In this document: positions 7,540-64,000 of the stretch, in pieces
Layout of the letters: each line of letters starts with the position of its first letter
How positions within the stretch are numbered: position 1 is the first letter of the stretch
Source: Bacteroidales bacterium
Lineage (GTDB): Bacteria > Bacteroidota > Bacteroidia > Bacteroidales > UBA932
DNA: 64,000 bases
Direction: 5' to 3'
Assembly (NCBI GenBank): GCA_017459075.1
Contig: JAFUDQ010000009.1
Coordinates: 1 to 64,000, forward strand
Made by a program: the position numbers and the translations under genes
The notes under the pieces: model-generated
Databases searched by the model: none
Told to the model about the DNA's origin: nothing
The model's input: only the letters and a program-made list of their open reading frames with translations

Positions 7540-7577
7540 GAGATTTCTCCACTCGCTTCGCTCGGTCGAAATGACAG
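7540..7577 (-). repeat. GTCATTTCGA palindromic repeat, intergenic copy
   Basis: On the minus strand it starts CTGTCATTTCGACCGAGCGA and ends GGAGAAATCTC, a single full-length copy of the family that is also inserted in truB, aroK and other genes. It lies 40 bases past the serB stop codon. Confidence 0.85.
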
Positions 7578-7616
7578 AAAGAGATGCCCGGTCTAGCCGG
7601 GAATGACAGGCTAGGT

Positions 7617-8852
7617 TTAGAGGCGGCCTTGGTCGCCGAGGTGGGAGTCTTTGAAGCCGAGGAAGTAGAGGACGCCGTCAAGGCCGATGGTACTGAGGCT
7701 CTGGCGGGCGCTTTCCTTGACACGGGGCTTGGCGTGGAAGGCTATGCCAAGGCCCGCCTCCATGAGCATCGGCAAGTCATTCGCCCCGTCGCCAACGGCA
7801 ATGGTCTGGGACAGATTTACCTTCTCAGTCATGGCAATAAGCTTCAGGAGGTCTGCCTTACGCCGCCCGTCAACAATCTCACCAACATAGCGGCCGGTAA
7901 GCTTACCATCCTCGCCAACCTCAAGCTCATTAGCATAAACGTAATCAATGCCGTATTTACGCTGCAAATACTCTCCAAAGAAAGTAAAGCCTCCGCTAAG
8001 GATGGCAATCTTGTACCCGCAGGTCTTAAGCACGCTCATAAGGCGGTCAGTACCCTCAGTAATAGGCAGGTTCTCTGCAATATCCCTCATGACAGACACG
8101 TCCAAGCCCTTAAGCAGCGCCACCCGCTCCGTAAAACTCTCGCGGAAATCAATCTCTCCGCGCATAGCGCGCTCAGTAATGGCAGCCACCTTGTCGTAGA
8201 CCCCGTGGCGACGCGCCAGCTCGTCAATACACTCTGCCTGAATAAGGGTGGAATCCATATCAAAGCAGATAAGACGGCGCATACGGCGGTACATATCGTC
8301 CTTCTGGAAAGAAAAATCCATTCCGGAATCGGCAGAAAGAGCCATAAGCTCCTTCTGGAAGGAAGCTTTGTCCTCCAGGCTTCCACGAATGGAAAACTCC
8401 ACGCAGGCGCGCACATTCCTCTCGGGATGCTTAATGCTCATTCGGCCCGTAAGACGCTTGATGGCATCAATATTCAGGTTGTGCCGGGCAATAATCTCAG
8501 AAGCCGCTTCAATCTGTGCCGCGCTCAGGCTTCGGCCAATAGCAGTAAGAATGTAGCGGTTTTTCCCCTGACGGCCGGCCCAAGCCTCGTAATCATCGTC
8601 AGAAATAGGTTCGAAACCAATGGTTACACCAAGCTCCGTAGTCTTGAACAGAAGCTCTTTCATAACCTGGCCGGACAAGGACTCGTCAATCCTAATCAGT
8701 ATACCCAATGACAGGGTACTATGAATATCGGCCTGTCCAATATCCAGAATCTGGGCATCGTATCGGGCCAGGATAGCCATCACCTCGGCCGTCAGGCCAA
8801 TCCGGTCTTTGCCGGCAATTCGTATAAGTATCTGTTCTTTACGGTTTTCCAT
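7617..8852 (-). CDS. serB: Phosphoserine phosphatase SerB
   Basis: A 411-residue cytoplasmic enzyme for the last step of serine biosynthesis (O-phosphoserine to serine). Two ACT-type regulatory domains fill the N-terminal part (about 1-185), starting with IRIAGKDRIGLTAEVMAIL. The HAD phosphatase domain follows: motif I FDMDSTLIQ with the nucleophilic Asp, motif II SGGF, and the motif III/IV region VGDGANDLPML. Length and layout match the ACT-containing SerB of Bacteroidota. The gene starts 12 bases after the nuclease gene stop on the same strand, so the two may be cotranscribed although their functions are unrelated. Confidence 0.95.
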   Translation of the reverse strand: MENRKEQILIRIAGKDRIGLTAEVMAILARYDAQILDIGQADIHSTLSLGILIRIDESLSGQVMKELLFKTTELGVTIGFEPISDDDYEAWAGRQGKNRYILTAIGRSLSAAQIEAASEIIARHNLNIDAIKRLTGRMSIKHPERNVRACVEFSIRGSLEDKASFQKELMALSADSGMDFSFQKDDMYRRMRRLICFDMDSTLIQAECIDELARRHGVYDKVAAITERAMRGEIDFRESFTERVALLKGLDVSVMRDIAENLPITEGTDRLMSVLKTCGYKIAILSGGFTFFGEYLQRKYGIDYVYANELEVGEDGKLTGRYVGEIVDGRRKADLLKLIAMTEKVNLSQTIAVGDGANDLPMLMEAGLGIAFHAKPRVKESARQSLSTIGLDGVLYFLGFKDSHLGDQGRL

Positions 8853-8864
8853 CGTCTTAAAAAG

Positions 8865-10388: not shown

Positions 10389-10416
10389 CGTTCTATATGG
10401 TTTTCATTTCATCTTG

Positions 10417-10424
10417 CAAAGATA
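10417..10424 (-). promoter_or_regulatory. -7 element of the nuclease gene
   Basis: On the minus strand TATCTTTG lies 29 bases before the ATG at 10388, matching TAnnTTTG. A TTTG at -33 is not evident. Confidence 0.5.
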
Positions 10425-10647
10425 ATCATTTATTGTATAGAATTGGTAAAAAAATATCAGCATCACTTTCCCTGCCGTCGCCCGTTGGGCGACCCCCTCC
10501 CATCGCAAGCGAAGGGCCGATGCTGCCTTGTCAGGAGCTTTTGATGTTCAAATAGTACAAAAAATTTAAAAAATTGTACCATATTCCATTCAATTTGCGA
10601 AAAATTCGTATATTTATGCCTTGATGAATCACTAACACCGGACCGAT

Positions 10648-11526: not shown

Positions 11527-11588
11527 CCATTGTTAAAAAAGTATCATAATCTGATAAATTTTTGTCACTACACCTCGTTTTAACGCGC

Positions 11589-11596
11589 TATCTTTG
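11589..11596 (+). promoter_or_regulatory. -7 element of the GH3 gene
   Basis: TATCTTTG, 28 bases before the ATG at 11624. The nearest upstream TTTG (11561-11564) is 24 nt away, longer than the usual 19-21, so the promoter may need an activator such as the AraC protein encoded next door. Confidence 0.5.
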
Positions 11597-11597
11597 C

Positions 11598-11613
11598 ATC
11601 GTTTTAAAACGAT
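11598..11613. promoter_or_regulatory. 16-bp palindrome at the GH3 transcription start
   Basis: ATCGTTTTAAAACGAT is a perfect palindrome that begins one base after the -7 element, so it overlaps the expected transcription start. It is well placed for an operator. A shorter palindrome AAAACGTTTT has the same position in front of the SusC gene (47831-47840). Confidence 0.45.
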
Positions 11614-11623
11614 TAACCCGGGG

Positions 11624-13837
11624 ATGACCAAAATTTTCAGAAAAGCGATTCAGATCGCGACCCTTATTGCTGCCGTTTCTTCCTGCACCTGCGGGCAGGT
11701 TTCCTTCGTATCCGTGAAGGATGGGCAGTTTATGCGTGACGGCAAACCCTATACTTATGTAGGAACCAATTTCTGGTACGGTCCAATCCTGGCTGACAAG
11801 AGCATGGAAAGCATCGGCATACCATGTATTTACGGTCTTGATATGATTCATGGTGCAACATATCTTACCGATGGCTCTTTCTATCCGCAGGAGGTTAATA
11901 TCGCCGCTACTTTCAACCGTGAGTATGCCCGTCAGCTAGGTGCTGCAATGGCTTATGAGACCCGTGCCGCCCAGGTTCCGTGGGTGTTCTCCCCTGTCAT
12001 GGACCTTGGCCGTGATCCCCGCTGGCCGCGTATTTGGGAGAGCTTCGGAGAGGATCCTTTCCTTCAGGCAGAGATGGCCCGCGAAGAGACTGTTGCCATC
12101 CAGGGTACTGACCCCAATCATATCGACCTTGAGCATGCAGCTGTTTCCATCAAGCATTTCATGGGTTACGGAGTTCCTGCTTCCGGCAAGGACCGTACTC
12201 CGGCTTACATAGCAGGGAATGACCTTCGCGAGAAGTTCTTTGCGCCTTTCCTGGCTTGCTTCAAGGCAGGCGCCCTTACCGCTATGGTAAATTCTGCGTC
12301 CATCAACGGCATCCCTACCCATGCTAATAAGGAGCTTCTGACCGGTTGGGTTAAGGAGCAGCTTGGCTGGGACGGTATGTTTGTCACCGACTGGGCGGAT
12401 ATCGACAATCTCTTTAACCGTGACCATGTGGCTGCCAACAAGCGCGAGGCCGTTGCCATGGGAATCAATGCCGGCATCGACATGATTATGGATCCTTATG
12501 ACCCTGAGTGCGTCAATGATATAGTTGCCCTTGCCGAGTCCAGAGACATCCCTATGTCCCGCATTGACGATGCTGTGCGCCGTATCCTTCGACTTAAAGT
12601 CCGTCTGGGCCTCTTTGAGAATCCTCTTTGGGAGCATGATTACAAGGACTTTGCGTGCGAGCGTTTTGCCAAGGAGTCTTATGCTGCCGCCGTTGAGTCT
12701 GAGGTTCTTCTTAAGAACGATGGCATCCTGCCTCTCAAGGGTTCCGAGCGTATTCTTGTTACCGGCCCTAATGCTAACTCCCTGCGCACCATCAACGGTG
12801 GCTGGAGCTATACCTGGCAGGGTAATGCCGATGCCTATGTTCCCCAGTACAATACTATTTATGATGCCCTGAAGGCTCGTTTTGGCAAGGTTAGCTATGA
12901 GCCCGGCGTTGTTTACAGCAATGACCCTGACTGGCAGGCAGAGGATGCTTCCGGCATTGTCCGCGCTGTTGCTGCCGCCCGTGCGGCCGATGTTATTGTG
13001 GCTTGCGTTGGTGAGAATTCTTACTGCGAGACTCCGGGTAACATGGATGACCTTAACCTTTCCGCCAACCAGAAGGCTTTGGTAAAGGCTCTTGCCGCTA
13101 CCGGAAAGCCGGTTATCCTTGTGCTTAATGAGGGTCGTCCCCGCCTTATCGGCGATATCGAGCCTCTTGTAAAGGCTGTCATTGATGTTATGCTGCCTTC
13201 TAATTATGGTGCCGATGCCCTTGCAGCCCTTATGGCTGGCGATGAGAATTTCTCCGGCCGCCTGCCGTTCACTTATTCCAAGCATATCAACGCCCTGCAT
13301 ACTTACGATTACAAGGTTTCAGAGCACCGCGATACCATGGAGGGTTCATACAACTACGATGCTGTTATGGATGTTCAGTGGCCCTTCGGCTACGGCCTCA
13401 GCTACACCAGCTTCGAGTACAGCAACCTCCGCGTTGTCACCCCGAGCGACCCTTCTGTCACCCCGAGCGACTCTTCTGTCACCCCGAGCGAAGTCGAGGG
13501 GCCTCAATCCTTCAAGGCCGGCGACACCATCAAAGTGTCTGTTGATGTAAAGAATACCGGCGCTGTGGCTGGCAAGGAGGCTGTGCTTGTTTACAGCTCA
13601 GACCTTGTTGCTTCCCTTATTCCGGATGTTAAGCGTCTCCGCGCATTCGAAAAGGTTGCTCTTGAGCCCGGCCAGACGGTTACTGTTTCCTTCGAGATTC
13701 CGGCTTCCGCCCTTGCTTTCGTTGGTACAGATGGCAAATGGCGTCTTGAAAAGGGTGACTTCCGCATCAGCTGCGGCGGTCTTTCCGCAATGCTTAACTG
13801 CACTGAAACTAAAATTTGGGACAGTCCTAATATTTAG
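11624..13837 (+). CDS. GH3 glycoside hydrolase with a GH5_7-mannanase-like N-terminus (chimera)
   Basis: A 737-residue secreted enzyme. From residue 58 (DKSMESIGIPCIYGLDMIHG) it is a GH3 beta-glucosidase-type protein: Lys-His pair in SIKHFMGYG (K177, H178), nucleophile Asp256 in FVTDWAD, an alpha/beta sandwich domain, and a C-terminal FN3-like domain. Residues 1-57 do not look like GH3. They hold a signal peptide and then VKDGQFMRDGKPYTYVGTNF followed by WYGPILA, the mature N-terminus of Bacteroidota GH5_7 beta-mannanases. GH3 proteins normally have about 90 more residues before the DKSME segment, so the first part of the barrel is missing. This looks like an in-frame deletion fusing two neighbouring genes; activity is doubtful. 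I start at ATG 11624, because an earlier in-frame TTG lies inside the promoter. Residues about 605-628 are encoded by a GTCACCCCGA repeat. Confidence 0.85.
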   Translation: MTKIFRKAIQIATLIAAVSSCTCGQVSFVSVKDGQFMRDGKPYTYVGTNFWYGPILADKSMESIGIPCIYGLDMIHGATYLTDGSFYPQEVNIAATFNREYARQLGAAMAYETRAAQVPWVFSPVMDLGRDPRWPRIWESFGEDPFLQAEMAREETVAIQGTDPNHIDLEHAAVSIKHFMGYGVPASGKDRTPAYIAGNDLREKFFAPFLACFKAGALTAMVNSASINGIPTHANKELLTGWVKEQLGWDGMFVTDWADIDNLFNRDHVAANKREAVAMGINAGIDMIMDPYDPECVNDIVALAESRDIPMSRIDDAVRRILRLKVRLGLFENPLWEHDYKDFACERFAKESYAAAVESEVLLKNDGILPLKGSERILVTGPNANSLRTINGGWSYTWQGNADAYVPQYNTIYDALKARFGKVSYEPGVVYSNDPDWQAEDASGIVRAVAAARAADVIVACVGENSYCETPGNMDDLNLSANQKALVKALAATGKPVILVLNEGRPRLIGDIEPLVKAVIDVMLPSNYGADALAALMAGDENFSGRLPFTYSKHINALHTYDYKVSEHRDTMEGSYNYDAVMDVQWPFGYGLSYTSFEYSNLRVVTPSDPSVTPSDSSVTPSEVEGPQSFKAGDTIKVSVDVKNTGAVAGKEAVLVYSSDLVASLIPDVKRLRAFEKVALEPGQTVTVSFEIPASALAFVGTDGKWRLEKGDFRISCGGLSAMLNCTETKIWDSPNI
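13436..13505 (+). repeat. GTCACCCCGA repeat inside the GH3 gene
   Basis: Three heads with a 21-bp period and the tail GAAGTCGAGGGGCCTC. It encodes VTPSDPSVTPSDSSVTPSEV and a few further residues, sitting between the sandwich domain and the FN3-like domain. The reading frame is kept. Confidence 0.9.
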
Positions 13838-13986: not shown

Positions 13987-14003
13987 AAAAAAAACATAAA
14001 TGA

Positions 14004-15314
14004 ATGATAGAGGATTTTAAGAGAGAGGTAAGGTCTAACCTTACAGATAATATATTGCCATATTGGCTAGCGCTGAAGGACCCGGAGGGTGGTTTCTACG
14101 GAGAAGTTACGTCCGACGGCACAGTCCTTCGAGATGCCCCCCGCGGCGTAATCCTGAACGCCCGCATAATCTGGTCATTTGCAGCCGCATACCAGGCCAT
14201 CCCGGACAAAGAGTACCTGCTGGCCGCAATCCACGCCAAAGACTGGTTCCTGGCCCATTTCAGCGACCATAAATACGGTGGCGTCTACTGGTCTGTGAAT
14301 GCCGACGGCTCCCGGCTGGATGCCAAGAAACAGCTCTACGCCCAGGGCTTTGCCATCTACGGCCTTTCGGAACTGTACAAGGTTACCCATGACGATGAGG
14401 TACTTAAGGCTGCTGTGAACATCTACCGAGTGGTTGAGGCTCATTTTGCCGATGCTGCCAACGGTGGCTACATAGAAGCCCTTTCACGTGACTTCTCTCC
14501 GCTGGAGGACATGTCACTGTCGGCCCACGACATAAATGCCGATAAGACCATGAACTCGCATCTTCATATCCTTGAAGCTTATGCGAATCTTTATACCGTA
14601 TGGCCCGATGCCGGCCTGAAGAAGGCTGTTGAGGCTCTTCTGGACATCATCGGCACCAAGGTTATGGATGAGGCCGGGCATTTGCAGCTTTACTTTAAAC
14701 GTGACTGGAGCGTGCTTCCGGGCGGTATTTCCTACGGACATGACATTGAGACTTCCTGGCTGGCTCTGGAATGCGCCTTCGCCCTTAAGGACCAGGCCGT
14801 AGTGGAGCGCGTCCGTCCCTGGGCTTACGCCATGGGCCTTGCCGGCAATGAAGGCCTTCTCCCTGACGGTTCCATGCGTTATGAGCGGCTCGTCACGCCT
14901 GACTCTGATCGGGTATCTTATGACGATTCCCGCCAGTGGTGGGTCCAGGCTGAAACCGTTGTCGGCAATCTCTGGCTCCGGAAGTACCACGATGGCCTTT
15001 CGAGCTCTTCTTCTGTCATTTCGGACTCTTCTTCTGTCATTTCGGACTCTTCTTCTGTCATTTCGGACTCTTCTTCTGTCATTTCGGACTCTTCTTCTGT
15101 CATTTCGAGCGAAGTCGAGAAATCTCAATTCCTATTAAATTCCATAGCTGCTTGGAAATATATTAAGAACAACCTGGTAGATAATGACGGAGGCGAATGG
15201 TGGTGGGCCATACTGCCCGACGGCAGCATAGACAAAGCCAACCCCAAAGCCGGCTTCTGGAAATGCCCCTACCACAACACCAGAATGTGCCTTCAGGTTT
15301 TGAATTTGATATAA
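14004..15314 (+). CDS. Cellobiose/mannobiose 2-epimerase (AGE family)
   Basis: A 436-residue cytoplasmic (alpha/alpha)6-barrel enzyme of the N-acylglucosamine 2-epimerase superfamily, closest in motifs to cellobiose/mannobiose 2-epimerase: opening KDPEGGFYGEVTSDG, and the conserved His segments MNSHLHILEAYANLY, SYGHDIETSWL and PYHNTRMC. It would convert beta-1,4-mannobiose (or cellobiose) to mannosyl-glucose (or glucosyl-mannose) before phosphorolysis. The neighbours (GH3 with mannanase-like start, GPH symporter) favour a mannan pathway; the usual partner GH130 phosphorylase is not in the window. A 124-bp repeat insertion encodes a Ser-rich tract (five copies of a 7-residue SSSVISD-like unit) in a loop around residues 334-374, before the last barrel helices. 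Confidence 0.88.
   Translation: MIEDFKREVRSNLTDNILPYWLALKDPEGGFYGEVTSDGTVLRDAPRGVILNARIIWSFAAAYQAIPDKEYLLAAIHAKDWFLAHFSDHKYGGVYWSVNADGSRLDAKKQLYAQGFAIYGLSELYKVTHDDEVLKAAVNIYRVVEAHFADAANGGYIEALSRDFSPLEDMSLSAHDINADKTMNSHLHILEAYANLYTVWPDAGLKKAVEALLDIIGTKVMDEAGHLQLYFKRDWSVLPGGISYGHDIETSWLALECAFALKDQAVVERVRPWAYAMGLAGNEGLLPDGSMRYERLVTPDSDRVSYDDSRQWWVQAETVVGNLWLRKYHDGLSSSSSVISDSSSVISDSSSVISDSSSVISDSSSVISSEVEKSQFLLNSIAAWKYIKNNLVDNDGGEWWWAILPDGSIDKANPKAGFWKCPYHNTRMCLQVLNLI
15003..15126 (+). repeat. GTCATTTCGA repeat inside the epimerase gene, five tandem heads
   Basis: Five copies of TCTGTCATTTCGGACTCTTCT-like 21-bp units, the last continuing into the tail GCGAAGTCGAGAAATCTC. All units are in frame and code for SVISDSS-type heptapeptides. 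Four of the units are nearly identical, which suggests recent expansion. Confidence 0.92.
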
Positions 15315-16724: not shown

Positions 16725-16727
16725 GTG

Positions 16728-17780
16728 TTACTTGGGCGTAATGGTGTCTGCGCAGAGGTGGGCGGCGGAGGGGACCGGGAGACATGACAGGTGGAAAACC
16801 TTGGCGGAACCGATAGCCTTTTCTACCGAGCGGCTTAGGGCGTCCATAATAGCCCTGTTCCATCTGACAGATGAAACGGAACCAAGAAGGGAAGCATAGG
16901 CGTTAAGGCCATATTCCTGAGTGATTGAATTCTCCGGAGCCTGATCTAGCCGAACTATCGCATTTACCGGAGCACAAATATTTCTGTAGCAGGGAGTTTT
17001 GCCGCTCCAGGGAGTGCCGTAAACAATTAACTGTCCGGCCGCGTCAAAGCCGAGCGCCGGATTATCGTCATTAAGGAGCTCTGTACCGGGAATATTCTCC
17101 AGCCAAAGCCTGCTGTGGGTACTCTTACCAGTTCCGCTCTTGCCAAGGAAGATGTTTGCCCTGCCGTCCAGCCCTATAACGGAGGCGTGAAAAAGCATGA
17201 CTTCGCGGAGAGCCGCATTGTAGGTAAACATAATCATAAGGGCTGTCGACATCTGGAAAACAACCCCGTAAGGCCTCTGGCTGGCATCGGCATACATTAC
17301 TCCTTCTGAAAAGTCAGGGGACATTGCCAGAATTGCGGCAGGTTTTCCTGTTTCCAAATCTTCATCAAGGGTGTACTGTGTGCCTTCCGCAGATTCGTAG
17401 ATGCTGTAATATGGGGACTGTTCGTGAACTTCGGCCAGCAGTTTTCCAAGTTTGGGGGCGTTCTCCAGGCCTTTTTGTACCCTGAGGGTAAATACAGGGG
17501 GCTGAGATTTCTCCGCTCCGGCTTCGCCTTCGGTCGAAATGGCAAACGGGGCGTACTGGGAAAGGTCCAGGCCGCTGGCCCCGGGCAGGAGCTCCTCGCG
17601 GGACTGGATAAGGGTCCTGTGCGGTACATCGTCGCCGGCCCTTGTGGGACGGATATCAAGGCCTGCCTCTCCGCGGCTTGCCCTCTCAATCCTTTCCAGT
17701 ACTACAGGAGAGTATTCCATCTCCCGGTAGGGGTCCTCTAACAAAACTTCAAAAACTATCCCGGCAACTTTGTATTTCAT
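16728..17780 (-). CDS. HPr-kinase/PEPCK-like P-loop protein
   Basis: A 350-residue protein. The N-terminal part (about 1-180) has no family I recognise; the C-terminal part has a Walker A loop FLGKSGTGKSTHS and the downstream NDDNPALGF Asp pair found in HprK-type kinases and PEP-carboxykinase-like folds. Bacteroidota have many such HprK-related proteins of unknown substrate. The start at 17780 (MKYKVAG) is an ATG; a further in-frame TTG lies 18 bases upstream. It follows truB by 59 bases on the same strand and so may be the last gene of the dcw transcript. A short GTCATTTCGA-type repeat encodes part of residues 80-92 (around EGEAGAEKSQPP). Confidence 0.65.
   Translation of the reverse strand: MKYKVAGIVFEVLLEDPYREMEYSPVVLERIERASRGEAGLDIRPTRAGDDVPHRTLIQSREELLPGASGLDLSQYAPFAISTEGEAGAEKSQPPVFTLRVQKGLENAPKLGKLLAEVHEQSPYYSIYESAEGTQYTLDEDLETGKPAAILAMSPDFSEGVMYADASQRPYGVVFQMSTALMIMFTYNAALREVMLFHASVIGLDGRANIFLGKSGTGKSTHSRLWLENIPGTELLNDDNPALGFDAAGQLIVYGTPWSGKTPCYRNICAPVNAIVRLDQAPENSITQEYGLNAYASLLGSVSSVRWNRAIMDALSRSVEKAIGSAKVFHLSCLPVPSAAHLCADTITPK
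17504..17543 (-). repeat. GTCATTTCGA-family repeat inside the HPr-kinase-like gene
   Basis: On the minus strand it runs from GCCATTTCGACCGAAGGCGA to GGAGAAATCTC, one full unit of about 40 bp, in frame. Confidence 0.8.
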
Positions 17781-17839
17781 GGTTCTATTGATTTTCAATT
17801 AGTTACGCATTTTAACCTGGCAAATTTTGCTAAGTTGAA

Positions 17840-18775
17840 TTACGTAAGTGTCTGATTTTCAATGGTGGCTTTTTCCGGAGGGGCGAATAGAGCAGCGGCT
17901 TGCTCTACGGACAGGGCCTCGGAGGCGCGGAAGCCGCCGCAGGCGGTGCGCCGGAGACTGTCCAGGTGCGCTCCCGTGCCCAGGGCTTCGCCCAGGTCGC
18001 GGGCAAAGGCTCGTACGTACGTGCCTTTGGAGCATGCGAGCCGCACTTCGGCGCGCGGCAACCCCAGCGCGGTGTTGTCCGTAACGTTTATACGGCTGCT
18101 GGCGGTTGAGATTTCTCCGCTCCGTCCTTTGGACTCCGGTCGAAATGACATCGGCTTTTCTGTCCTTTCGAGCGAAGTCGAGAAATCTCCTTCCTTGAAT
18201 GACAATAATTCAATCTCATTAATCCTGATGAGTTGCTTGCTCAGAATAGCCTCAGCTTCACTGTCAAGGGCATCCAAAGCCCCCTGACGGTACATCTTCC
18301 GTGCAAGCTCATAGGCGCGAACCCCGTCCACGGACTTGGCAGAAAACAGCGGAGCAATCTGCTCCTGCTCCCCAATGAAACCCTCCAGGGCGCGGGCCAC
18401 GGCGGCCTCAGAAACCCCGTCCACGGGGAAAAACCTGTCAATAGGCTTCTCCAAGTCATAAGACGGAGTGGTAGCACCAAAGGTAATCCCGGCTACATAC
18501 TCCTTGTCACTTCGCTGGATTTCCTCTGCAAGCTTCGTAGCCTTCCCTATGCAAATAATGAGCACCCCGGTAGCCAAAGGATCCAGCGTACCGGCGTGCC
18601 CTACTTTCAAATTTTTCTGCCCGAAATGCTTCTTTGCGGCAAACTTCAGTTTCCTGACAACATCGGCCGAAGTCCATCTGTAAGGCTTGTCCACCGGAAC
18701 AATGATACCATCAGGATAATCGCCGATGCTACGGGACAAAACCCCTGTCCCACGGTTTGCCACAAGTACAGCCAT
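17840..18775 (-). CDS. truB: tRNA pseudouridine-55 synthase TruB
   Basis: A 311-residue enzyme that isomerises U55 to pseudouridine in the tRNA T-loop. The catalytic Asp65 is in GHAGTLDPLATGVL; the start DGIIVPVDKPYRWTSADVV and the RNA-binding segment CSKGTYVRAFARDLGEALG are also canonical. It shares its first base region with the end of rpiB. An 83-bp repeat insertion encodes about 28 extra residues between ELLSF and the beta-strand EVRLACSKGTYVRAF, a surface-loop position that should leave the fold intact. Confidence 0.95.
   Translation of the reverse strand: MAVLVANRGTGVLSRSIGDYPDGIIVPVDKPYRWTSADVVRKLKFAAKKHFGQKNLKVGHAGTLDPLATGVLIICIGKATKLAEEIQRSDKEYVAGITFGATTPSYDLEKPIDRFFPVDGVSEAAVARALEGFIGEQEQIAPLFSAKSVDGVRAYELARKMYRQGALDALDSEAEAILSKQLIRINEIELLSFKEGDFSTSLERTEKPMSFRPESKGRSGEISTASSRINVTDNTALGLPRAEVRLACSKGTYVRAFARDLGEALGTGAHLDSLRRTACGGFRASEALSVEQAAALFAPPEKATIENQTLT
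18108..18190. repeat. Head-to-head pair of GTCATTTCGA repeats inside truB
   Basis: A minus-orientation unit (GAGATTTCTCCGCTCCG ... GGTCGAAATGACA) is followed by a plus-orientation unit (TGTCCTTTCGAGCGAAGTCG ... AGAAATCTCC). The pair makes an 83-bp imperfect palindrome that keeps the truB frame open. Confidence 0.9.
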
Positions 18776-36372: not shown

Positions 36373-36498
36373 GGAAAAATGTTTCAGATTCCTACCATTT
36401 CTTTCCACTTTTTTACAAATTTTTCCACCGCCCCCTTTCCAGCCCTCCCCAGGCCGTTTTTTCCCGCCGCTCAAACGGAATGCCCTTCGCACCCTCCT

Positions 36499-36527
36499 GT
36501 CATTTCGACCGTAGCGGAGAAATCTCC
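36499..36527 (+). repeat. GTCATTTCGA repeat, intergenic short copy
   Basis: TGTCATTTCGACCGTAGCGG runs into AGAAATCTCC: the minimal head-plus-tail unit of about 30 bp, without tandem heads. Confidence 0.85.
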
Positions 36528-36659: not shown

Positions 36660-36831
36660 TCATCATTATCGCAGGCTTTATACCCCTTACAAAATACCCG
36701 TAACGCCCATATTAACCACAAAACTGACCCATTGGCAATGAAAATTCGTTCGCTTTCCCACCTCCGGCGAAAACAAGTAGCAACGGGCCGGTAGTCCCGG
36801 GCCCCTATGTAGAATGTGTTGGGAAGTTTAG

Positions 36832-36865
36832 GGGCTTGGGGGAGCGAATAGTTCCCCCAGTATTG
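36832..36865 (-). repeat. Intergenic block shared with 7129-7160 (inverted)
   Basis: Read on the minus strand this block gives CAATACTGGGGGAACTATTC followed by GCTCCCCCAAGCCC; the 7129-7160 block reads CATACTGGGGGTACTTTTCG followed by CTCCCCCAGGCC. GGGGG and CCCCC form the stem of a hairpin in both. Confidence 0.7.
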
Positions 36866-36977
36866 ACTCTCCCGTGGTTGCGAAGCAACCGCCGCACTTA
36901 GTGGTCGTGCGGCTGCGATGCCTGTCATGTAGTAGCTGCCGGAGGTCGCTTATTCCGGCAGAGGTATTCTTCAAGTT

Positions 36978-37013
36978 CCAGGTGCAGGAAGGGCGGTTTT
37001 GCACCGCGAGAAA
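36978..37013 (+). repeat. GTGCAGG hairpin repeat, copy 3
   Basis: CCAGGTGCAGGAAGGGCGGT then TTTGCACCGCGAGAAA, nearly identical to the copy at 7216-7249, about 110 bases before ssb. Confidence 0.75.
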
Positions 37014-44078: not shown

Positions 44079-44113
44079 GAACCGAGGCGGCTAAAGTGGA
44101 CTGCTGACTAGGT

Positions 44114-44147
44114 CCAGGTGCAAAACCGGCCTTCCTGCACCGCGAGA
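44114..44147 (+). repeat. GTGCAGG hairpin repeat, copy 4 (inverted core)
   Basis: CCAGGTGCAAAACCGGCCTT then CCTGCACCGCGAGA. The flanks CCAGG and CGCGAG match other copies, but the core is reverse-complemented, as if inverted at the palindrome. It lies between the convergent thioredoxin and aroE genes. Confidence 0.75.
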
Positions 44148-44184: not shown

Positions 44185-45093
44185 TTAGAAGGGGTTGGGG
44201 AGGGTGCCGGTGAGGAGGGGGAAGCCGGCGAGGGCCTGGAGGCGGAGCCAGTCAAGGCCGGAGACGTGGATGCCGCCGGCGCGGAGCACGTTCATAAGGA
44301 TGGCGTCCTTTATGGATGGGTTTTTATAGTTGGCCTCTACGACGATTTTTGGGTGATGAGGGCCGATTTTTTCGAAATCCCGGATTTCAAGATCCGATAG
44401 TTCCGTGATATGAGCCGATGCTGCGTAGATAATTACGTCACAGCTTTTTACGGCAGCCTTCAGGTCCTGAAGACCGCAGATGGCGAAGCCATATTCCGGG
44501 AGACTCATGGCAAAATCAGCCGCCCTGGCCTGGGTGCGGTTGGTCAGAATCACGTCAAAGCCCAGCTCTGCTGCGGCCACCGCCGCCGCACGGCCAGCCC
44601 CGCCGCAGCCAACAACCAGAGCCTGGCCCCCGCCGGGGTACAGGACGCTGAACTGCTGCCTGAAGAACTGATGGACCCGCTTTACAAAGTCCGCCCCGAA
44701 CTCCCGACGGAATTCGCTGACGATTTCTGGGAAGCAGGCTTCTGCCAGCCCCAGTATAACGGCGGAAAAGTCAGAGTTGTCGCCGTAGATAATCTCACTG
44801 GAATCGGGCCCTAGCTGCTTTACCGCCAGGTTTACAGCCCCGGCCCTGAATGCCGGGCCGGACAAAGCCCCAAGACCGTCGGCCGTCAGGGCCGCTATTT
44901 GAGCAAAGGCTTTTTCCTTAAATGGAGCGGTAATGTTTATGCCCTCATAGCCGCTAAGGAAGCGCTTCCAAAGTGCCTGGAAATCAGCGCCTTCAATAAT
45001 GTCGTACGGCCATTTGCCTCCATAAGCCGTCCGGAACAGGTCCGGGCTGCCGGAATGGCTGATATCGCTGCCCATTAGTCCGAATTTTTTCAT
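44185..45093 (-). CDS. aroE: Shikimate dehydrogenase
   Basis: A 302-residue enzyme that reduces 3-dehydroshikimate with NADPH. It has the GLMGSDISHSGSPDLFRTAY opening, the catalytic Lys in NITAPFKEKAF, and a Rossmann NADP loop VVGCGGAGRAAAVAAAEL followed by NRTQAR. Its ATG overlaps the stop of the TrmH-type gene (ATGA), and the repeat at 45094-45172 ends right at that ATG. Another shikimate gene, aroK, is at the end of the window. Confidence 0.93.
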   Translation of the reverse strand: MKKFGLMGSDISHSGSPDLFRTAYGGKWPYDIIEGADFQALWKRFLSGYEGINITAPFKEKAFAQIAALTADGLGALSGPAFRAGAVNLAVKQLGPDSSEIIYGDNSDFSAVILGLAEACFPEIVSEFRREFGADFVKRVHQFFRQQFSVLYPGGGQALVVGCGGAGRAAAVAAAELGFDVILTNRTQARAADFAMSLPEYGFAICGLQDLKAAVKSCDVIIYAASAHITELSDLEIRDFEKIGPHHPKIVVEANYKNPSIKDAILMNVLRAGGIHVSGLDWLRLQALAGFPLLTGTLPNPF

Positions 45094-46094
45094 AGATTTC
45101 TCGACTCGCTTCGCTCGCTCGAAATGACAGAATTTGTGCTCGAAATGACAGAATTTGTGCTCTGAATGACAGAAGACTGTCTTTGGCGGACGGCCTCGAA
45201 GAGAAGGATGGCGGCGGAAACGGACACATTCAGGGAATCAAGGCGGCCCAGCATAGGGATGCGTATGTGCTCGTCAGCAGCCTGCCGCCAAGCATCCGAG
45301 AGGCCGGTAGCCTCCGTCCCCATAACCAGTGCAACCCCGCGGCTCATGTCAGAATTGTAGTATAAGACAGAGTCCTGAAGCTGCGCAGTCAGAATGCGTA
45401 TCCCCTTGTTTTTCAGGTATTTAATTGCTTCTTCCGATGTTGCTGTTACAACTGGTACGGTGAATACTGCGCCGATGGAAGCGCGGATTAGGTTAGGGTT
45501 GAAAAGGTCCGTCAGGGGGTCGCAGACAATGACAGCGCCGGCCCCGGCGGCATCGGCGCTGCGAAGCACTGCGCCAAGATTCCCCGGTTTCTCTACAGAC
45601 TCCAGAACCATAACCAGCGGATTCTCCGGCAGGGACAGGCTGTCAAGGTTGCGCTCTGGCGTAACCATTTCTGCGATAATGCCTTCCGTGCCCTCACGGT
45701 AGGCGATTTTGCTGTATACGGCAGGGGAGACCTCGAAGTAGGAGAGATTTCTCGACTCGCTTCGCTCGCTCGAAATGACAGAGGACTCGCTCGAAATGAC
45801 AGAGGACTCGCTCGAAATGACAGAGGACTCGCTCGAAATGACAAATTTGTCATCCCGAGCGAAGCCGAGGGGTCTCAGAACCTTGCACAGCAGGGGCGTT
45901 TCGGCGGTCAGTTCCAGAATCTCCGGGCAAATGAACAGCGTATCTATCCGGAAACCAGCTTCAAGTGCGTGCTCCAGTTCCCTTCTGCCTTCCAAAACAA
46001 AAAGGCCCTTCTCCCGCCGCAGTTTAGACTTCTCCTGCAACGCCAGCAACTCCTTAACCTTCGGATTCTGTCCAGATGTAATTCTCTCTGCCAT
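45090..46094 (-). CDS. TrmH/SpoU-family RNA methyltransferase with repeat insertions
   Basis: A 334-residue SPOUT methyltransferase (2'-O-ribose type). The N-terminal substrate-binding domain starts SGQNPKVKELLALQEKSKLR; the SPOUT knot motifs are ESVEKPGNLGAVLRSADAAG, MGTEATGLSD and LDSLNVSVSAAILLFEAV. Two repeat blocks interrupt it: about 45 residues between CKVLRPLG and LSYFEVSPAV (a 7-residue SSVISSE unit four times), and a C-terminal extension with SSVIQST/NSVISST units. Both are outside the knot. Which rRNA or tRNA site it modifies cannot be told. Confidence 0.9.
   Translation of the reverse strand: MAERITSGQNPKVKELLALQEKSKLRREKGLFVLEGRRELEHALEAGFRIDTLFICPEILELTAETPLLCKVLRPLGFARDDKFVISSESSVISSESSVISSESSVISSERSESRNLSYFEVSPAVYSKIAYREGTEGIIAEMVTPERNLDSLSLPENPLVMVLESVEKPGNLGAVLRSADAAGAGAVIVCDPLTDLFNPNLIRASIGAVFTVPVVTATSEEAIKYLKNKGIRILTAQLQDSVLYYNSDMSRGVALVMGTEATGLSDAWRQAADEHIRIPMLGRLDSLNVSVSAAILLFEAVRQRQSSVIQSTNSVISSTNSVISSERSESRNL
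45094..45172 (-). repeat. GTCATTTCGA repeat at the TrmH stop / aroE start
   Basis: Three heads with a 21-bp period, then the tail GAGTCGAGAAATCT that runs directly into the ATG of aroE. It encodes the C-terminal tail of the methyltransferase and replaces the native upstream region of aroE. Confidence 0.92.
45744..45844 (-). repeat. GTCATTTCGA repeat inside the TrmH-type gene, four tandem heads
   Basis: Four heads with a 21-bp period (CTCGAAATGACAGAGGACTCG on the plus strand) and a full tail GAGCGAAGCGAGTCGAGAAA then TCTC on the minus strand. All units are in frame. Confidence 0.92.
45849..45876 (+). repeat. GTCATCCCGA repeat, opposed copy inside the TrmH-type gene
   Basis: TGTCATCCCGAGCGAAGCCG followed by AGGGGTCT, the GTCACCCCGA subtype in plus orientation, head-to-head with the neighbouring minus unit. 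Confidence 0.85.
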
Positions 46095-56647: not shown

Positions 56648-56676
56648 GGAGCGGCTCCGCCTGGGGCCGCTCCTTT
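56648..56676 (+). terminator. Hairpin between the N-glycan locus and the nan genes
   Basis: GGAGCGGC / GCCGCTCC (8 bp, GC-rich) around a 10-nt loop, followed by only TTT and then A-rich DNA. It may be a partial terminator that lowers, rather than blocks, transcription into nanA. Confidence 0.6.
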
Positions 56677-56689
56677 AAAAAAAATCGCA

Positions 56690-57607: not shown

Positions 57608-57609
57608 CC

Positions 57610-59831: not shown

Positions 59832-59836
59832 CCCAT

Positions 59837-61078: not shown

Positions 61079-61097
61079 ATTCTGAAATACATTTTGT

Positions 61098-61170
61098 GAT
61101 TCTTCACTTCTTTCATGTGACTCTGAACGAAATTCATGTCATTCTGAACGAAGTGAAGAATCTCTTTTTT
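61098..61170 (+). terminator. Terminator-like palindrome built from a repeat copy
   Basis: A 13-bp inverted repeat (GATTCTTCACTTC at 61098-61110 and GAAGTGAAGAATC at 61150-61162) with T-rich end TCTCTTTTTT. The loop contains two head units with a 21-bp period (CATGTGACTCTGAACGAAAT and CATGTCATTCTGAACGAAGT). It ends the nan operon and shows that a diverged member of the GTCATT repeat family can act as a terminator. Confidence 0.6.
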
Positions 61171-61184
61171 CCTCTGCAATTACT

Positions 61185-61215
61185 TTTGATATAAGAACAA
61201 AAAATTATATATTTG
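61185..61215 (+). promoter_or_regulatory. Promoter of recJ (leaderless mRNA likely)
   Basis: TTTG (61185-61188), 19-nt spacer, TATATTTG (61208-61215). The expected transcription start falls on or next to the ATG at 61222, so the transcript should have almost no 5' leader. Confidence 0.65.
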
Positions 61216-61221
61216 CAAACT

Positions 61222-62961
61222 ATGGAAAAAGCAGCAGCAAGGAAATGGATAGTCAGGGAGCCTTCGGACGCGGAGGCCGTAAGCCGGCTCTCGGCAGAGC
61301 TGGGCATTGACCCTGTGCTCTCCTCCCTCCTTGTCCAGCGCGGAGTTGAGACCTTTGAAGAGGCCCGCGCCTTTTTCCGTCCGGACCTTTCATCCCTTCA
61401 TGATCCCTTCCTGATGAAGGACATGGACAAGGCTGTAGCCCGCCTTCGCAAAGCCGTTATTTCAGGAGAAAAAATCCTGGTTTACGGAGACTATGACGTG
61501 GACGGAACCACTGCCGTAGCCCTTGTCTATTCCTTCCTCCGCCGTTTCACTTCAAGGGTAGACTTCTACATCCCTGACCGTTATGACGAGGGTTACGGCG
61601 TCTCCCGCAAGGGCATCGAGTGGGCCTCAGAAAACGGATTCAAGCTAATCATTACCCTGGACTGCGGCATCAAGGCCATAGAGAAGGTTGAATATGCTGC
61701 ATCCAAGGGCATCGATGTAGTCATCTGCGACCATCATCTTCCGGAGGAAGGCCTTCCGGCCGCCGTAGCAGTGCTTGACCCGAAGAGGGAAGACTGCCAC
61801 TATCCTTTCGATGATTTATGCGGATGCGGCGTCGGCTTCAAGCTGGTCCAGGCTTATGCACAGACAGAGGGAATCGCCTTTGAAGAGTTGCTACCGCTGC
61901 TTGACCTGCTGGTTGTAAGTATTGCATCGGACCTTGTATCCGTCCGCGGAGAGAACAGGGTGCTGGCCCACTTCGGCCTTAAACGGCTCAATGAACAGCC
62001 CCGCAAGGGCCTTCAGGCCATCATCAACCTGTCGAACCTGGAGAGCAGCCATGTCACAATAGACGATATCGTCTTTAAAATCGGCCCCAGAATCAATGCT
62101 GCCGGCCGTATAGAGAGCGGCCGCCTGGCAGTGGAACTTCTGACGGCTCAGGACGATGCTGAGGCTGCGCGCATCGCTTCGCAGATAAATGACAATAATA
62201 ACGAGCGAAAGAGTATAGACCGCGAGATTACCAGGGAGGCTATTGAAATGGTAATGACCGGGAACTGCGTTTCGTCAGAGAATGCCACCATCGTTTACAA
62301 CCCTTCATGGAACAAGGGAGTTGTGGGTATCGTGGCTTCCCGCCTTGTAGAGGCCTTCTACAAGCCTACCTTCGTGCTTACCAAATCCAACGGCTTTGTG
62401 ACCGGTTCCGCCCGCAGCGTACGCGGCTTTGACCTTTATGATTCGATTGAGTCCCAGGCAGACCTTCTGGAAAACTTCGGCGGCCATATTTACGCTGCCG
62501 GACTTACGATGAAAGAGGAGAACCTGCCGGAGTTCGCCCGCCGTATTGACGAGTATGTTGCAGCCCATCTAAGCAAGGAAATGTCCACTCCCGTGGTTGA
62601 GGTGGATTCAGTCCTGGACTTCTCTCATATCACTCCCAAGTTCTTCAGGATTCTGAAGCAGTTCCAGCCCTTCGGCCCCGGCAACAGCGCTCCTGTTTTC
62701 CTGACGGAGAATGTGTATGACGACGGTAACGGGCGCAAGGTTGGTCCCGCAGCCCAGCATCTTAAGCTGGAGCTTATCCAGGAGTCGCAGCCTTATCACC
62801 AGATTGGTGCCATTGGCTTTAATATGTCAGAGTATTTTGACCATATCAAGGCCGGCAATCCCTTCGATATCTGCTATTCAATTGTGGAGAATTACTATCG
62901 CGGCAACTCTACCATCCAGCTCCGCATCAAAGATATCCGCGAGCGGGAGGATGTTATCTGA
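61222..62961 (+). CDS. recJ: Single-stranded-DNA exonuclease RecJ
   Basis: A 579-residue DHH-superfamily 5'-3' nuclease for recombination and repair. The DHH motifs read YGDYDVDGTTAVAL, DCGIKAIE and ICDHHLPEEG; the DHHA1 domain includes GVVGIVASRLVEAF and GSARSVRGFDLYDSI, and a C-terminal OB domain ends the protein. The ATG at 61222 is preferred over an upstream TTG that lies within the promoter. The 3' end overlaps aroK by 8 bases, tail to tail. Confidence 0.95.
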   Translation: MEKAAARKWIVREPSDAEAVSRLSAELGIDPVLSSLLVQRGVETFEEARAFFRPDLSSLHDPFLMKDMDKAVARLRKAVISGEKILVYGDYDVDGTTAVALVYSFLRRFTSRVDFYIPDRYDEGYGVSRKGIEWASENGFKLIITLDCGIKAIEKVEYAASKGIDVVICDHHLPEEGLPAAVAVLDPKREDCHYPFDDLCGCGVGFKLVQAYAQTEGIAFEELLPLLDLLVVSIASDLVSVRGENRVLAHFGLKRLNEQPRKGLQAIINLSNLESSHVTIDDIVFKIGPRINAAGRIESGRLAVELLTAQDDAEAARIASQINDNNNERKSIDREITREAIEMVMTGNCVSSENATIVYNPSWNKGVVGIVASRLVEAFYKPTFVLTKSNGFVTGSARSVRGFDLYDSIESQADLLENFGGHIYAAGLTMKEENLPEFARRIDEYVAAHLSKEMSTPVVEVDSVLDFSHITPKFFRILKQFQPFGPGNSAPVFLTENVYDDGNGRKVGPAAQHLKLELIQESQPYHQIGAIGFNMSEYFDHIKAGNPFDICYSIVENYYRGNSTIQLRIKDIREREDVI

Positions 62962-63598
62962 CCTCTTTTGCGGCGGCCTGGTAGTTGGCCTTGCGGGTTT
63001 CATAAAGATTTTTCAAGAGCTCTGTGAGCTCTTTTTTTGTTTTTGCCGATGCCAGCAGTGGTCTTGAGTCGATGGCGCCTTGTTCCCACAGTCGTTCTGC
63101 TATTACCTCTATCGGCGTATCCAGCCAGATGCAGTAGCTGTTTTTCTTCACCAGTTCCAGATTCTCTGGATCCTCCAGTGTGCCACCTCCAAGAGCAAGG
63201 AAAGAGATGTCTCGACTTCGCTCGACATGACAGGAAGAATGCTCGACATGACAGGAAGAATGTTCGACCGTACCCTTTTCTGCCATTTCTACCGGGTTAT
63301 TTTTTGTCATTTCTACCGGGTTATTTTTTGTCATTTCGACCGAAGTCCGATAGGACGGAGTGGAGAAATCTCCTTCCAGAATATCCATTAGGCATTCTTT
63401 TTCAAGGGAACGAAAGGCAGCTTCCCCGTCTTCCGCGAAGATGCGTGCGACGGCCTTGCCGGCGCGGCGCTCCACCTCTGCGTCCAAATCTATCCACCGG
63501 GCAGGCTGGCCGGAAGCAGAAAGCTGCGCTGCAAGCTCCCTCGCAGCCCAGCTCTTCCCGCTTCCCGGCATCCCCGCTATGGTTATAATCCTTTTCAA
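62954..63598 (-). CDS. aroK: Shikimate kinase with a large repeat insertion
   Basis: A 214-residue kinase for shikimate 3-phosphate (normal length about 175). The P-loop is AGMPGSGKSWAARELA, the Asp and Arg of the acceptor site are in WIDLDAEVERRAGKAVARIF, and the GGGT segment (LALGGGTLED) and lid IEVIAERLWEQG follow. Residues about 76-132 come from the 170-bp repeat at 63204-63373 and sit just before the strand that leads into GGGT. The start codon is TTG and overlaps the stop of the upstream gene (TTGA). Confidence 0.9.
   Translation of the reverse strand: MKRIITIAGMPGSGKSWAARELAAQLSASGQPARWIDLDAEVERRAGKAVARIFAEDGEAAFRSLEKECLMDILEGDFSTPSYRTSVEMTKNNPVEMTKNNPVEMAEKGTVEHSSCHVEHSSCHVERSRDISFLALGGGTLEDPENLELVKKNSYCIWLDTPIEVIAERLWEQGAIDSRPLLASAKTKKELTELLKNLYETRKANYQAAAKEVR
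63204..63373. repeat. 170-bp compound GTCATTTCGA repeat inside aroK
   Basis: A plus-side unit (GAGATGTCTCGACTTCGCTC and two ATGACAGGAAGAATGCTCGAC heads, 21 bp apart) opposes a minus-side block with three heads at 24-bp spacing (GTCATTTCTACCGGGTTATT) and a full tail GAGAAATCTCC. The aroK frame stays open through all of it. Confidence 0.92.
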
Positions 63599-64000
63599 AT
63601 ATTGAAAAGATTCGGCTCCTCTTCGTCGCCAAACGACATGTCGTCAATTCCAAGGTCAATCACATCCCCCGCCACTGCATCCCGCTTCTTGGAGGTATTC
63701 TTTTTTTGAGACCCCTCGACTTCGCTCGGGGTGACAGAAGAATCGCTCGGGGTGACAGAAGAATCGCTCGGGGTGACAGAAGAATCGCTCGGGGCTTTCT
63801 CTGTCATTTCGACCGGAGGCGCAGCCGGGGTGGAGAAATCTCCTTCCTCCGGGACAGAAAGAAGGTCTATCGGCTCGTCCTCAGATTCCTCGACTTCGCT
63901 CGGAATGACAGAGGACTCGCTCGGAACAGGAAGCGGCTCGCCAAAAGCGACAGCCTTGAGGTCTAAAGCCGAACACTTCTTACCCTTAGCCGTGAACCCC
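63595..64000 (-). CDS. parC: C-terminal end of probable DNA topoisomerase IV subunit A (partial)
   Basis: An open frame enters from the right edge and ends at 63595; at least 134 residues are seen. The first 20 residues (GFTAKGKKCSALDLKAVAFG) resemble the end of the ParC C-terminal beta-propeller in Bacteroidota (pattern AKGKR near the last strand). What follows is a poorly conserved acidic tail with three repeat blocks encoding SVIPSEVEES, DFSTPAAPPVEMTEK and SDSSVTPSDSSVTPSEVEGS, then a short tail DLGIDDMSFGDEEEPNLFNI. The ParC call is a recollection of family pattern and only the tail is visible. Confidence 0.55.
   Translation of the reverse strand, partial: GFTAKGKKCSALDLKAVAFGEPLPVPSESSVIPSEVEESEDEPIDLLSVPEEGDFSTPAAPPVEMTEKAPSDSSVTPSDSSVTPSDSSVTPSEVEGSQKKNTSKKRDAVAGDVIDLGIDDMSFGDEEEPNLFNI
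63708..63794 (-). repeat. GTCACCCCGA repeat in the parC tail, tandem heads
   Basis: On the minus strand, three complete heads plus a partial one with a 21-bp period, then the tail GAAGTCGAGGGGTCTC. The units encode SVTPSDS heptapeptides. Confidence 0.92.
63801..63843 (+). repeat. GTCATTTCGA repeat in the parC tail, opposed copy
   Basis: CTGTCATTTCGACCGGAGGC through GGGGTGGAGAAATCTCC, plus orientation, head-to-head with the preceding block. Confidence 0.88.
63883..63926 (-). repeat. GTCATTCCGA repeat in the parC tail, third copy
   Basis: On the minus strand: a partial head, then TGTCATTCCGAGCGAAGTCG, then AGGAATCT, encoding SESSVIPSEVEES. A third subtype (ATTCC) of the same family in one gene. 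Confidence 0.85.

What the first reader, a model, noticed from the sequence alone, without database searches (positions are those of the whole stretch)
7540..63926. Family of short palindromic repeats inserted in frame into at least seven protein genes
Seen directly: units with head GTCATTTCGA (or the subtypes GTCACCCCGA, GTCATTCCGA) and tail GAGAAATCTC / GAGGGGTCTC occur at more than a dozen places. They lie inside the GH3, epimerase, HPr-kinase-like, truB, TrmH-type, aroK and parC-tail genes as well as in intergenic DNA. Every intragenic copy keeps the frame and sits in a linker or surface loop, before or between conserved segments. Rickettsia palindromic elements are the closest known analogue (established). 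The inference is that this is an active, protein-tolerated element; no transposase or RAYT-type gene for it is in the window.
Basis: partly seen in the sequence, partly recalled or inferred. Interest (0 to 1): 0.93.

Follow-up and report, generated by a model that had tools for sequence, protein, structure and literature searches.

The report
In-frame, length-variable DNA repeats inside genes
A rumen bacterium carries a short palindromic DNA repeat at many sites, including in frame inside at least 27 predicted protein genes, where tandem copies add stretches of amino acids predicted to form floppy loops; because the copies are spaced in whole codons in all 34 tested arrays that an open reading frame spans, and their number differs between near-identical sequences, the repeat is likely a tolerated genomic parasite that is still changing.

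Summary
The window carries the units at about 13 places, in seven genes and in intergenic DNA. The genome has 82 exact TGTCATTTCGANNGNNG against 0 for the reversed control. The unit is a TGTC-tagged, REP-like palindrome whose arms covary (92 of 99). It closely resembles the published CGTC-tagged REPs, which include two Rickettsia RPE families, but differs in tail, stem and dimer arrangement. I count 27 solid host genes in about a fifth of the genome, including aroK, aroC, recR, truA, truB, parC, metG and dnaX. Beyond the published picture: the head half of the unit forms tandem arrays. Where one ORF spans an array, all head spacings are multiples of three in 34 of 34 arrays from three species; elsewhere 15 of 45, the chance rate. 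Duplicate contigs of the bin (46.9 kb aligned, one substitution) differ at three arrays, one of them by two 7-codon units in aroK. A sister species shows empty sites and other unit numbers. The AroK insert is predicted disordered within an intact fold. Mobilisation by RAYT-like transposases is plausible but only correlative. Verdict: real, a new variant of a known kind.

The parts
7540..7576 (-). single unit, ATTTC type, intergenic, downstream of a serB-like gene; an imperfect TGTCATTCCCGG..CCGGGCAT palindrome lies directly before it on the same strand
11594..13837 (+). host gene: GH3 glycosidase
   Evidence: Pfam
13435..13507 (+). ACCCC-type array in GH3: three heads at 21 bp and one tail; the sister species has no such unit here but a CGTCATTGCCGG..CCGGCAATCC palindrome
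14004..15314 (+). host gene: 2-epimerase family (cellobiose 2-epimerase-like)
14994..15126 (+). array in the epimerase: five heads at 21 bp and one tail (VISDSSS repeats); three heads in the sister species
16728..17798 (-). host gene: HPr-kinase/PEPCK-like ORF (weakly identified)
17504..17544 (-). single unit with a TGCC head in the HPr-like gene; the sister has a different unit at the same place
17840..18775 (-). host gene: truB
18108..18189 (.). two units in opposite orientation in truB (18108-18150 on -, 18161-18189 on +), shared with the sister species
36498..36526 (+). single unit, intergenic, upstream of the mraZ ORF
45090..46094 (-). host gene: TrmH/SpoU-type RNA methyltransferase
45093..45171 (-). 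array at the C-terminus of the TrmH-type gene: three heads at 21 bp and a tail; one unit in L011, none in L012
45744..45876 (.). array of four heads (on -) plus one opposite unit (45848-45876 on +) in an internal loop of the TrmH-type gene
61112..61165 (+). ATTCT-type unit with one degenerate upstream head, intergenic
62954..63598 (-). host gene: shikimate kinase (aroK)
63204..63372 (.). composite insert in aroK: two ATGTC heads at 21 bp (-) and three ATTTC-type heads at 24 bp (+); absent in the sister species; four instead of two 21-bp units on duplicate contig C42
63595..64000 (-). host gene: C-terminal end of topoisomerase IV subunit A (gene continues beyond the window)
63706..63778 (-). 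ACCCC-type array in the parC tail: three heads at 21 bp and a tail
63802..63842 (+). ATTTC-type unit in the parC tail
63882..63910 (-). ATTCC-type unit in the parC tail

Best explanation
This is a family of short TGTC-tagged, REP-like palindromic repeats, dispersed through this rumen Bacteroidales genome and present in frame inside at least 27 predicted protein genes, that likely spread as substrates of a transposase acting in trans and likely grow in place by replication slippage of the head half of the unit. Shown: copies genome-wide, covarying arms, in-frame position in genes, presence/absence and unit-number differences between sister species, unit-number differences between duplicate contigs of one bin, and spacings divisible by three in all tested arrays that an ORF spans. 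Inferred: new copies land widely; in genes only landings survive that add a multiple of three, bring no stop and fall in a dispensable loop; a duplication of flank plus head then founds an array; only arrays with a period divisible by three can gain or lose units without breaking the gene, so these accumulate. The encoded segments are predicted to be disordered (modelled for AroK only). Which enzyme moves the unit is not shown; RAYT-like HUH transposases are the best candidates.
For: 82 exact copies against 0 in the reversed control; 92 of 99 heads with a tail have complementary arms, shuffle maximum 62, eight arm pairings; 27 of 31 listed host ORFs judged solid, heads in five frames and never in the stop-bearing sixth; sister-species comparisons at aroK, GH3, epimerase, TrmH, truB, aroC and an intergenic site; solved RecR has 2 residues where this RecR has 41; arrays spanned by an ORF 34 of 34 with all spacings divisible by three against 15 of 45 others, in three species; 46.9 kb of duplicate contigs with one substitution but three array-length changes; both aroK alleles in database proteins; AroK model with insert residues 79-127 under pLDDT 50; three or more copies in 15 of 46 genus genomes with PF01797 and 0 of 15 without, p=0.013.
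Against: Single units fold weakly as DNA: of five folded, four have a positive z-score and none is below -1.03. No unit was seen next to either RAYT-like gene, both genes are below NCBIfam's cut-off, and G044 has seven PF01797 matches and no unit. The RAYT correlation is not corrected for phylogeny. A first, cruder frame test showed no effect (21/36 v 28/43, p=0.64). All sequence is from metagenome bins; the own bin has 8.16% reported contamination. No strain-level new insertion was seen.
Confidence: 0.78

Rival explanations
1. The units spread without any transposase, by ectopic gene conversion or template switching at sites that already resemble their ends; slippage then makes the arrays.
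For: The empty aroK site of the sister reads GGAAGGAGACATTTC, close to the unit's own tail. The sister carries a different REP-like palindrome at the GH3 site and a different unit at the HPr-like site. No transposase gene is flanked by units; CGTC REPs in general are reported to lack one (PMC3733652).
Against: Sites without any resemblance exist (the TrmH C-terminus empty in L012; the intergenic L221 site). Copy number is higher in genus genomes with PF01797.
Confidence: 0.35
2. The arrays or their length differences are artefacts of metagenome assembly and binning.
For: The genome is a 53-contig bin with 8.16% reported contamination, some contigs duplicate others and differ mainly at the repeats, and no reads could be checked.
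Against: The same arrays occur in separately named bins (epimerase, TrmH C-terminus and aroC in G061). Both aroK alleles recur on other long contigs, though these may be assemblies of the same sample. Whole-unit differences and the frame rule in three genomes are not what misassembly would give.
Confidence: 0.06
3. The segments are ancestral or functionally selected loops that merely resemble each other.
For: They lie in functional genes and keep the frame.
Against: The same DNA occurs in unrelated genes, on both strands, in five frames and in intergenic DNA. Orthologues and solved homologues lack it.
Confidence: 0.02

Closest known systems
CGTC-tagged REP superfamily (Di Nocera et al. 2013, PMC3733652; seen: abstract, section 15, part 1 of section 17, found passages)
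   Same: Four-letter tag at one end (the paper notes CGTC is often TGTC), stem starting with AT in most arm types, dispersed copies, dimers, intragenic copies, no transposase gene flanked by them; reported in Bacteroidetes among five phyla.
   Different: Tail is CTC and not CCA; the commonest unit has a 5-bp outer stem, a bulge and a short inner stem instead of an 8-9 bp stem; same-strand arrays of the head half are common, where the paper calls head-to-tail dimers negligible.
Rickettsia palindromic elements (RPE-4 and RPE-6, assigned to CGTC-4 and CGTC-1 in PMC3733652; original papers not held, so not read)
   Same: Short palindromes inserted in frame in many unrelated protein genes, a tRNA pseudouridine synthase B gene among them.
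   Different: Different sequence and phylum; head-half arrays with a multiple-of-three rule and unit-number alleles are not described in the passages that I read.
Intragenic variable-number tandem repeats (e.g. Legionella, PMC2639597; seen: search listing and start of abstract)
   Same: Coding tandem repeats that vary between strains.
   Different: Here the units are halves of a dispersed REP-like element, present in frame in many housekeeping genes of one genome.
REP/RAYT systems (GTAG-tagged REPs with REP-associated tyrosine transposases; passages in PMC3733652, listings)
   Same: Dispersed short palindromes in a genome that also encodes Y1-type proteins.
   Different: No GTAG tag and no unit in the fetched flanks of the two RAYT-like genes.

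Membership tests
CGTC-tagged REP superfamily | Terminal CGTC (often TGTC) tag that is not part of the stem | tested here: met
   TGTC precedes the arm in the units by the search pattern; the 82 exact genome copies carry it and the reversed control has none.
CGTC-tagged REP superfamily | Complementary arms, AT at the first two stem positions | tested here: inconclusive
   92 of 99 arms complementary; AT start in most types but ACCCC and ACCCT types start with AC.
CGTC-tagged REP superfamily | Stem of 8-9 bp and loop of 4-5 nt | tested here: not met
   The 29-nt unit has 5-nt outer arms and a bulge and folds at -1.5 kcal/mol, no better than shuffles. The separate GTCATTCCCG..CGGGAATC copies of the same genome do have stems of that length.
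CGTC-tagged REP superfamily | Unpaired tail, mostly CCA | tested here: not met
   Tails read CTC (window units; the scan required CTC).
CGTC-tagged REP superfamily | Head-to-head dimers predominate, head-to-tail negligible | tested here: not met
   Same-strand head arrays are common: 95 same-strand neighbour pairs at most 60 bp apart in 116 clusters, duplicate contigs included. Opposite-strand pairs also occur.
CGTC-tagged REP superfamily | Intragenic copies occur; no transposase flanked by copies | tested here: met
   27 solid host genes; no unit in the fetched flanks of the two PF01797 genes.
REP/RAYT system (GTAG type) | RAYT gene flanked by its own REPs | tested here: not met
   No TGTC-type unit within the 2.5 and 3.2 kb loci of the two genes; other palindromes at these genes were not searched.
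REP/RAYT system (GTAG type) | Tyrosine transposase of the RAYT family in the genome | tested here: inconclusive
   Two PF01797 genes over Pfam's cut-off match NF047646 at 30.7 and 38.5 bits, below its cut-off of 80.
Rickettsia palindromic elements | In-frame insertion in protein genes | tested here: met
Rickettsia palindromic elements | RPE sequence similarity | not tested
   No RPE sequence was compared.
Intragenic VNTR | Strain-level change in the number of frame-keeping units | tested here: met
   aroK: two 21-bp units between C42 and C48 over 12,125 aligned positions with no other difference; contigs of one bin, not isolates.

The most novel reading that the evidence does not exclude
A dispersed REP-like element seeds frame-keeping, fast-changing repeats in dozens of core enzymes at once (amino-acid synthesis, RNA modification, recombination, translation), so that one selfish repeat gives a whole proteome a set of adjustable disordered loops: a genome-wide source of heritable protein-length variation in gut Bacteroidales.
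Probability: 0.2. Interest if true: 0.9.

Novelty: new variant of a known kind. Interest (0 to 1): 0.72.

Why it matters
In-frame palindromic elements have been a puzzle since the Rickettsia RPEs: are they protein-coding parasites, and how do proteins survive them? Here three related species carry such insertions, a close relative has empty sites, and selection leaves a countable trace (34 of 34 arrays against a chance third). A conserved enzyme, shikimate kinase, has insert alleles that differ by 14 residues within one bin, which makes tolerance, cost and possible use testable by complementation of a laboratory E. coli strain. It also warns annotators that such segments lengthen gene models and split domain hits in these genomes.

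Tried and rejected
Rejected: ancestral loops (orthologues and solved homologues lack the segments); chance similarity; a described RNA family (Rfam at gathering scores finds one tRNA in the window and nothing else). Ends of insertion sequences were not searched for.

Tried, weak or failed: a flank-only coding classifier for the frame test gave no effect (21/36 v 28/43, p=0.64); it calls short gaps between co-directional genes 'genic', so I replaced it by a spanning-ORF test. I made that choice after seeing the first result, and both are reported. Left out of the count: six arrays at the ends of fetched stretches (the three-head parC array among them) and the duplicate contigs L150 and L241-L245. 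Three further sites (ABC transporter gene, rmlB, a 37-bp intergenic array) could not be aligned with the sister genome; one search shows only that the sister hits break there. At aroDA the alignment is poor on the left side and shows only a shorter insert. Letters of the unit searched in papers: 129 papers, 25 listed, none of those on a bacterial repeat as far as titles and abstract starts show. Copy number of the unit and of GTCATTCCCG-type copies across 61 genus genomes is only weakly correlated (rho 0.26, p=0.039). Statements that something is not in print rest alone; subscription papers, the original RPE papers among them, are not held.

Of the 31 host ORFs listed I count 27 as solid. Left out are the POT transporter and the sigma-54 regulator (units may lie before the true start) and the BNR and cyclomaltodextrinase ORFs (a single head that may be chance). 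The HPr-like gene is counted although the scan misses its TGCC head. ORFs without a Pfam hit (L215:6590, L237:15125, L238:3417, L242:282) and one partial ORF (L208:7144) were not listed.
Full report
What is there. The window holds units of the form TGTC-ATTTC-GA...-GAAAT-CTC at about 13 places, in both orientations, inside seven genes and in intergenic DNA. Most in-gene copies are not single units but arrays of the head half (TGTCA....GA plus about 10 nt) at 21 bp, or 24 bp in part of aroK, ended by one full palindrome. The window is G000:C48:1-64000 of a 2.32 Mb, 53-contig bin. That genome has 82 exact TGTCATTTCGANNGNNG and none of the reversed pattern. Of 61 genomes drawn from the genus (the own one included) 28 have at least one copy, very unevenly (82, 57, 40, 28, 27, 21, 17 and fewer); of 198 drawn from the order 37 have one. 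The nearest relatives by the TrmH-type protein are rumen bins labelled uncultured Prevotellaceae (hRUG909, L011 = G061, 79% identity) and uncultured Bacteroidales (RUG205, L012 = G062, 72%). G061 has 26 exact copies, G062 none.

The unit is a palindrome by covariation. I read about 447 kb of the own genome (duplicates included) around the hits. There 239 distinct TGTCA....GA contexts were found, chance ones included; 99 have a recognisable tail, and 92 of these have exactly complementary 5-nt arms. Shuffling the tails gives 54 on average and 62 at most. Eight complementary pairings occur, among them ATTTC/GAAAT (71), ATGTC/GACAT (7), ATTCT/AGAAT (4), ATTCC/GGAAT (4) and ACCCC/GGGGT (2); they may trace to as few founders. 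In the sister's fetched sequence the count is 22 of 25 (shuffle mean 13.9, maximum 21). As single-stranded DNA the units fold weakly: of five folded, the 29-nt unit has -1.5 kcal/mol (z 0.77) and only one has a negative z (-1.03). A stable hairpin is therefore not shown.

Host genes. Besides the seven in the window, ORFs with Pfam support and in-frame units are a urocanase, an arginase-family gene, a citrate-lyase-ligase/CitG fusion, a dTDP-glucose dehydratase, an ABC ATPase, TrmO, an AroD-AroA fusion, chorismate synthase, PurD, an iron alcohol dehydrogenase, RecR, an HU/CCDC81-type protein, GH97, an alpha-amylase, methionyl-tRNA synthetase, DnaX, a TrmB-type methyltransferase, a Mur ligase, an alpha-2-macroglobulin and TruA. 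I count 27 of the 31 ORFs listed as solid. The 100 heads in these ORFs use five frames (53, 19, 12, 11, 5); the sixth, which has a stop in the consensus, is not used. Arrays inflate these counts. Being open in five of six frames is not rare in itself: 732 of 5000 random permutations of the 29-mer have five or six open frames.

They are insertions. In shikimate kinase 58 of 61 genus genomes have a match. The listed orthologues align to about residues 2-85 and, where a second stretch is listed, to about 125-213, except G024, G026, G056 and G007, which align across at 31-37% identity; a few rows are hits to the repeat itself. The sister species has no insert, and neither has database protein P0005 (12 members, 117 contigs). 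The TrmH-type gene has an empty C-terminus in L012, one unit in L011 and three heads here. The sister lacks the GH3 unit, but has a CGTCATTGCCGG..CCGGCAATCC palindrome there, and lacks a unit of about 65 bp in an intergenic site. The epimerase has five heads here and three there, with the same unit; chorismate synthase three and two. TruB shares two units, and the sister has one more; the HPr-like gene has different units at the same place. RecR has 41 residues where solved RecR has two; RmlB has about 44 more residues than its solved relative at residues 123-183. The AlphaFold2 model of AroK has pLDDT block means of 86-97 outside residues 71-130, and residues 79-127 lie under 50, between a helix and a strand. 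In relatives the same AroK and TrmH loops hold other repeat-like peptides, so these loops look like repeated landing sites.

The frame rule. I took all groups of two or more same-strand heads at most 48 bp apart in the fetched sequence of three species (85 groups, six of them too near a stretch's end to test) and asked whether one ORF with coding-like codons on both sides spans the group. All spacings are divisible by three in 34 of 34 spanned groups and in 15 of 45 others, the chance third (Fisher 7.6e-11). By species: G000 18/18 v 8/20, G057 8/8 v 5/18, G061 8/8 v 2/7. By single spacings: 55 of 55 v 24 of 76. An ORF forces only the total length, not each spacing, to be a multiple of three; still, an array that runs through several frames meets stops more easily, so the test may lean that way. 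G061 shares some arrays with G000 (the epimerase one, for example), so the species are not fully independent. Five groups in real genes that the test did not accept (RecR, TrmO, arginase, the TrmH C-terminus, the 24-bp part of aroK) sit in the 'other' class, which works against the result. A first classifier that used flanking coding potential alone showed no effect (21/36 v 28/43, p=0.64), because it counts short gaps between co-directional genes as genic.

The arrays change fast. Six contigs or contig parts of the bin duplicate others (46.9 kb of alignment, gaps included) with one substitution in all; a seventh similar pair (477 bp at 95%) was not counted. Three arrays differ: by 42 bp (two 21-bp units in aroK, frame kept), 54 bp (three 18-bp units) and 20 bp (one 20-bp unit), the last two with no verified gene around them. 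Both aroK alleles recur in the protein database on contigs of up to 109,657 and 109,778 bases; these may be other assemblies of the same sample. A further pair, P0020/P0021, differs by one 8-residue unit in the same loop.

How it works. Shown: dispersal, covarying arms, in-frame insertion, unit-number change and frame filtering. Inferred: the mobile step. The two PF01797 genes of the genome are distant RAYT relatives below NCBIfam's cut-off, without a unit in the fetched flanks. Across the 61 genus genomes three or more copies occur in 15 of 46 with PF01797 and in 0 of 15 without (p=0.013); the rank correlation is 0.34. Phylogeny is not controlled, and G044 has seven matches and no unit. I commit to a transposase in trans for spread, with conversion or template switching as the main rival. 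For the arrays slippage is the simplest cause: in the epimerase the 21-bp period equals the distance between a TTTCGAG in the flank and the one in the last head (sequence).

Relation to known families. Di Nocera et al. 2013 (PMC3733652; abstract, section 15, part 1 of section 17 and found passages seen) sort REPs into GTAG- and CGTC-tagged superfamilies. They assign two Rickettsia RPE families to the CGTC type, note that the tag is often TGTC, report intragenic copies (in tRNA pseudouridine synthase B genes of several species, among others), and find no transposase flanked by CGTC REPs. Our unit shares the tag, the intragenic habit and the lack of a flanking transposase. It fails on tail, stem and dimer arrangement, so I do not file it in their families. 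The same genome also has 22 GTCATTCCCG..CGGGAATC copies; 12 of these 22 sit 31-35 bp before a TGTCATTTCGA unit on the same strand (one of the 12 is on a duplicate contig), so the two types are linked in this genome, though copy numbers are only weakly correlated across the genus. I found no report of head-half arrays, of the multiple-of-three contrast or of such alleles in the searches.

Verdict. Real, well supported as an insertion family, and a new variant of a known kind. The surprise lies in its reach into core enzymes and in the countable trace of selection on the reading frame.

Noticed in passing
G000:C7:20064 and 20098, C13:41082 and 41114, C22:76547 and 76582, and others: A second palindrome type, GTCATTCCCG..CGGGAATC, sits 31-35 bp before a TGTCATTTCGA unit on the same strand in 12 of its 22 genome copies: a composite head-to-tail pair that may move as one.
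   Followed up: partly
window 7198-7299, 36960-37010, 44096-44146: A further dispersed repeat of about 51 nt with a GGTGCA..TGCACC palindrome, four copies in the window (family D6).
   Followed up: no
window 7130-7162 and 36831-36863; 7308-7383 and 36893-36968: Two long inverted-repeat pairs link the stretches around 7.2 kb and 36.9 kb (I24 and I4).
   Followed up: no
window 6796-6851: An 11-bp tandem array (ATGTTGATTCA, five copies) between an ORF and the tRNA gene.
   Followed up: no
L013, L014, L016, L018, L021, L024, L026, L029 (TrmH loop): Relatives carry other, unrelated-looking repeat-like peptides in the same TrmH-type loop, so several repeat families seem to land there.
   Followed up: no
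G089:C30:38455-40732: In another Bacteroidales genome nine copies of the head pattern lie on one strand within 2.3 kb.
   Followed up: no
G000:C42, C45, C43, C40, C41, C39: The bin holds contigs that duplicate parts of others almost letter for letter, which may explain part of its reported contamination.
   Followed up: partly
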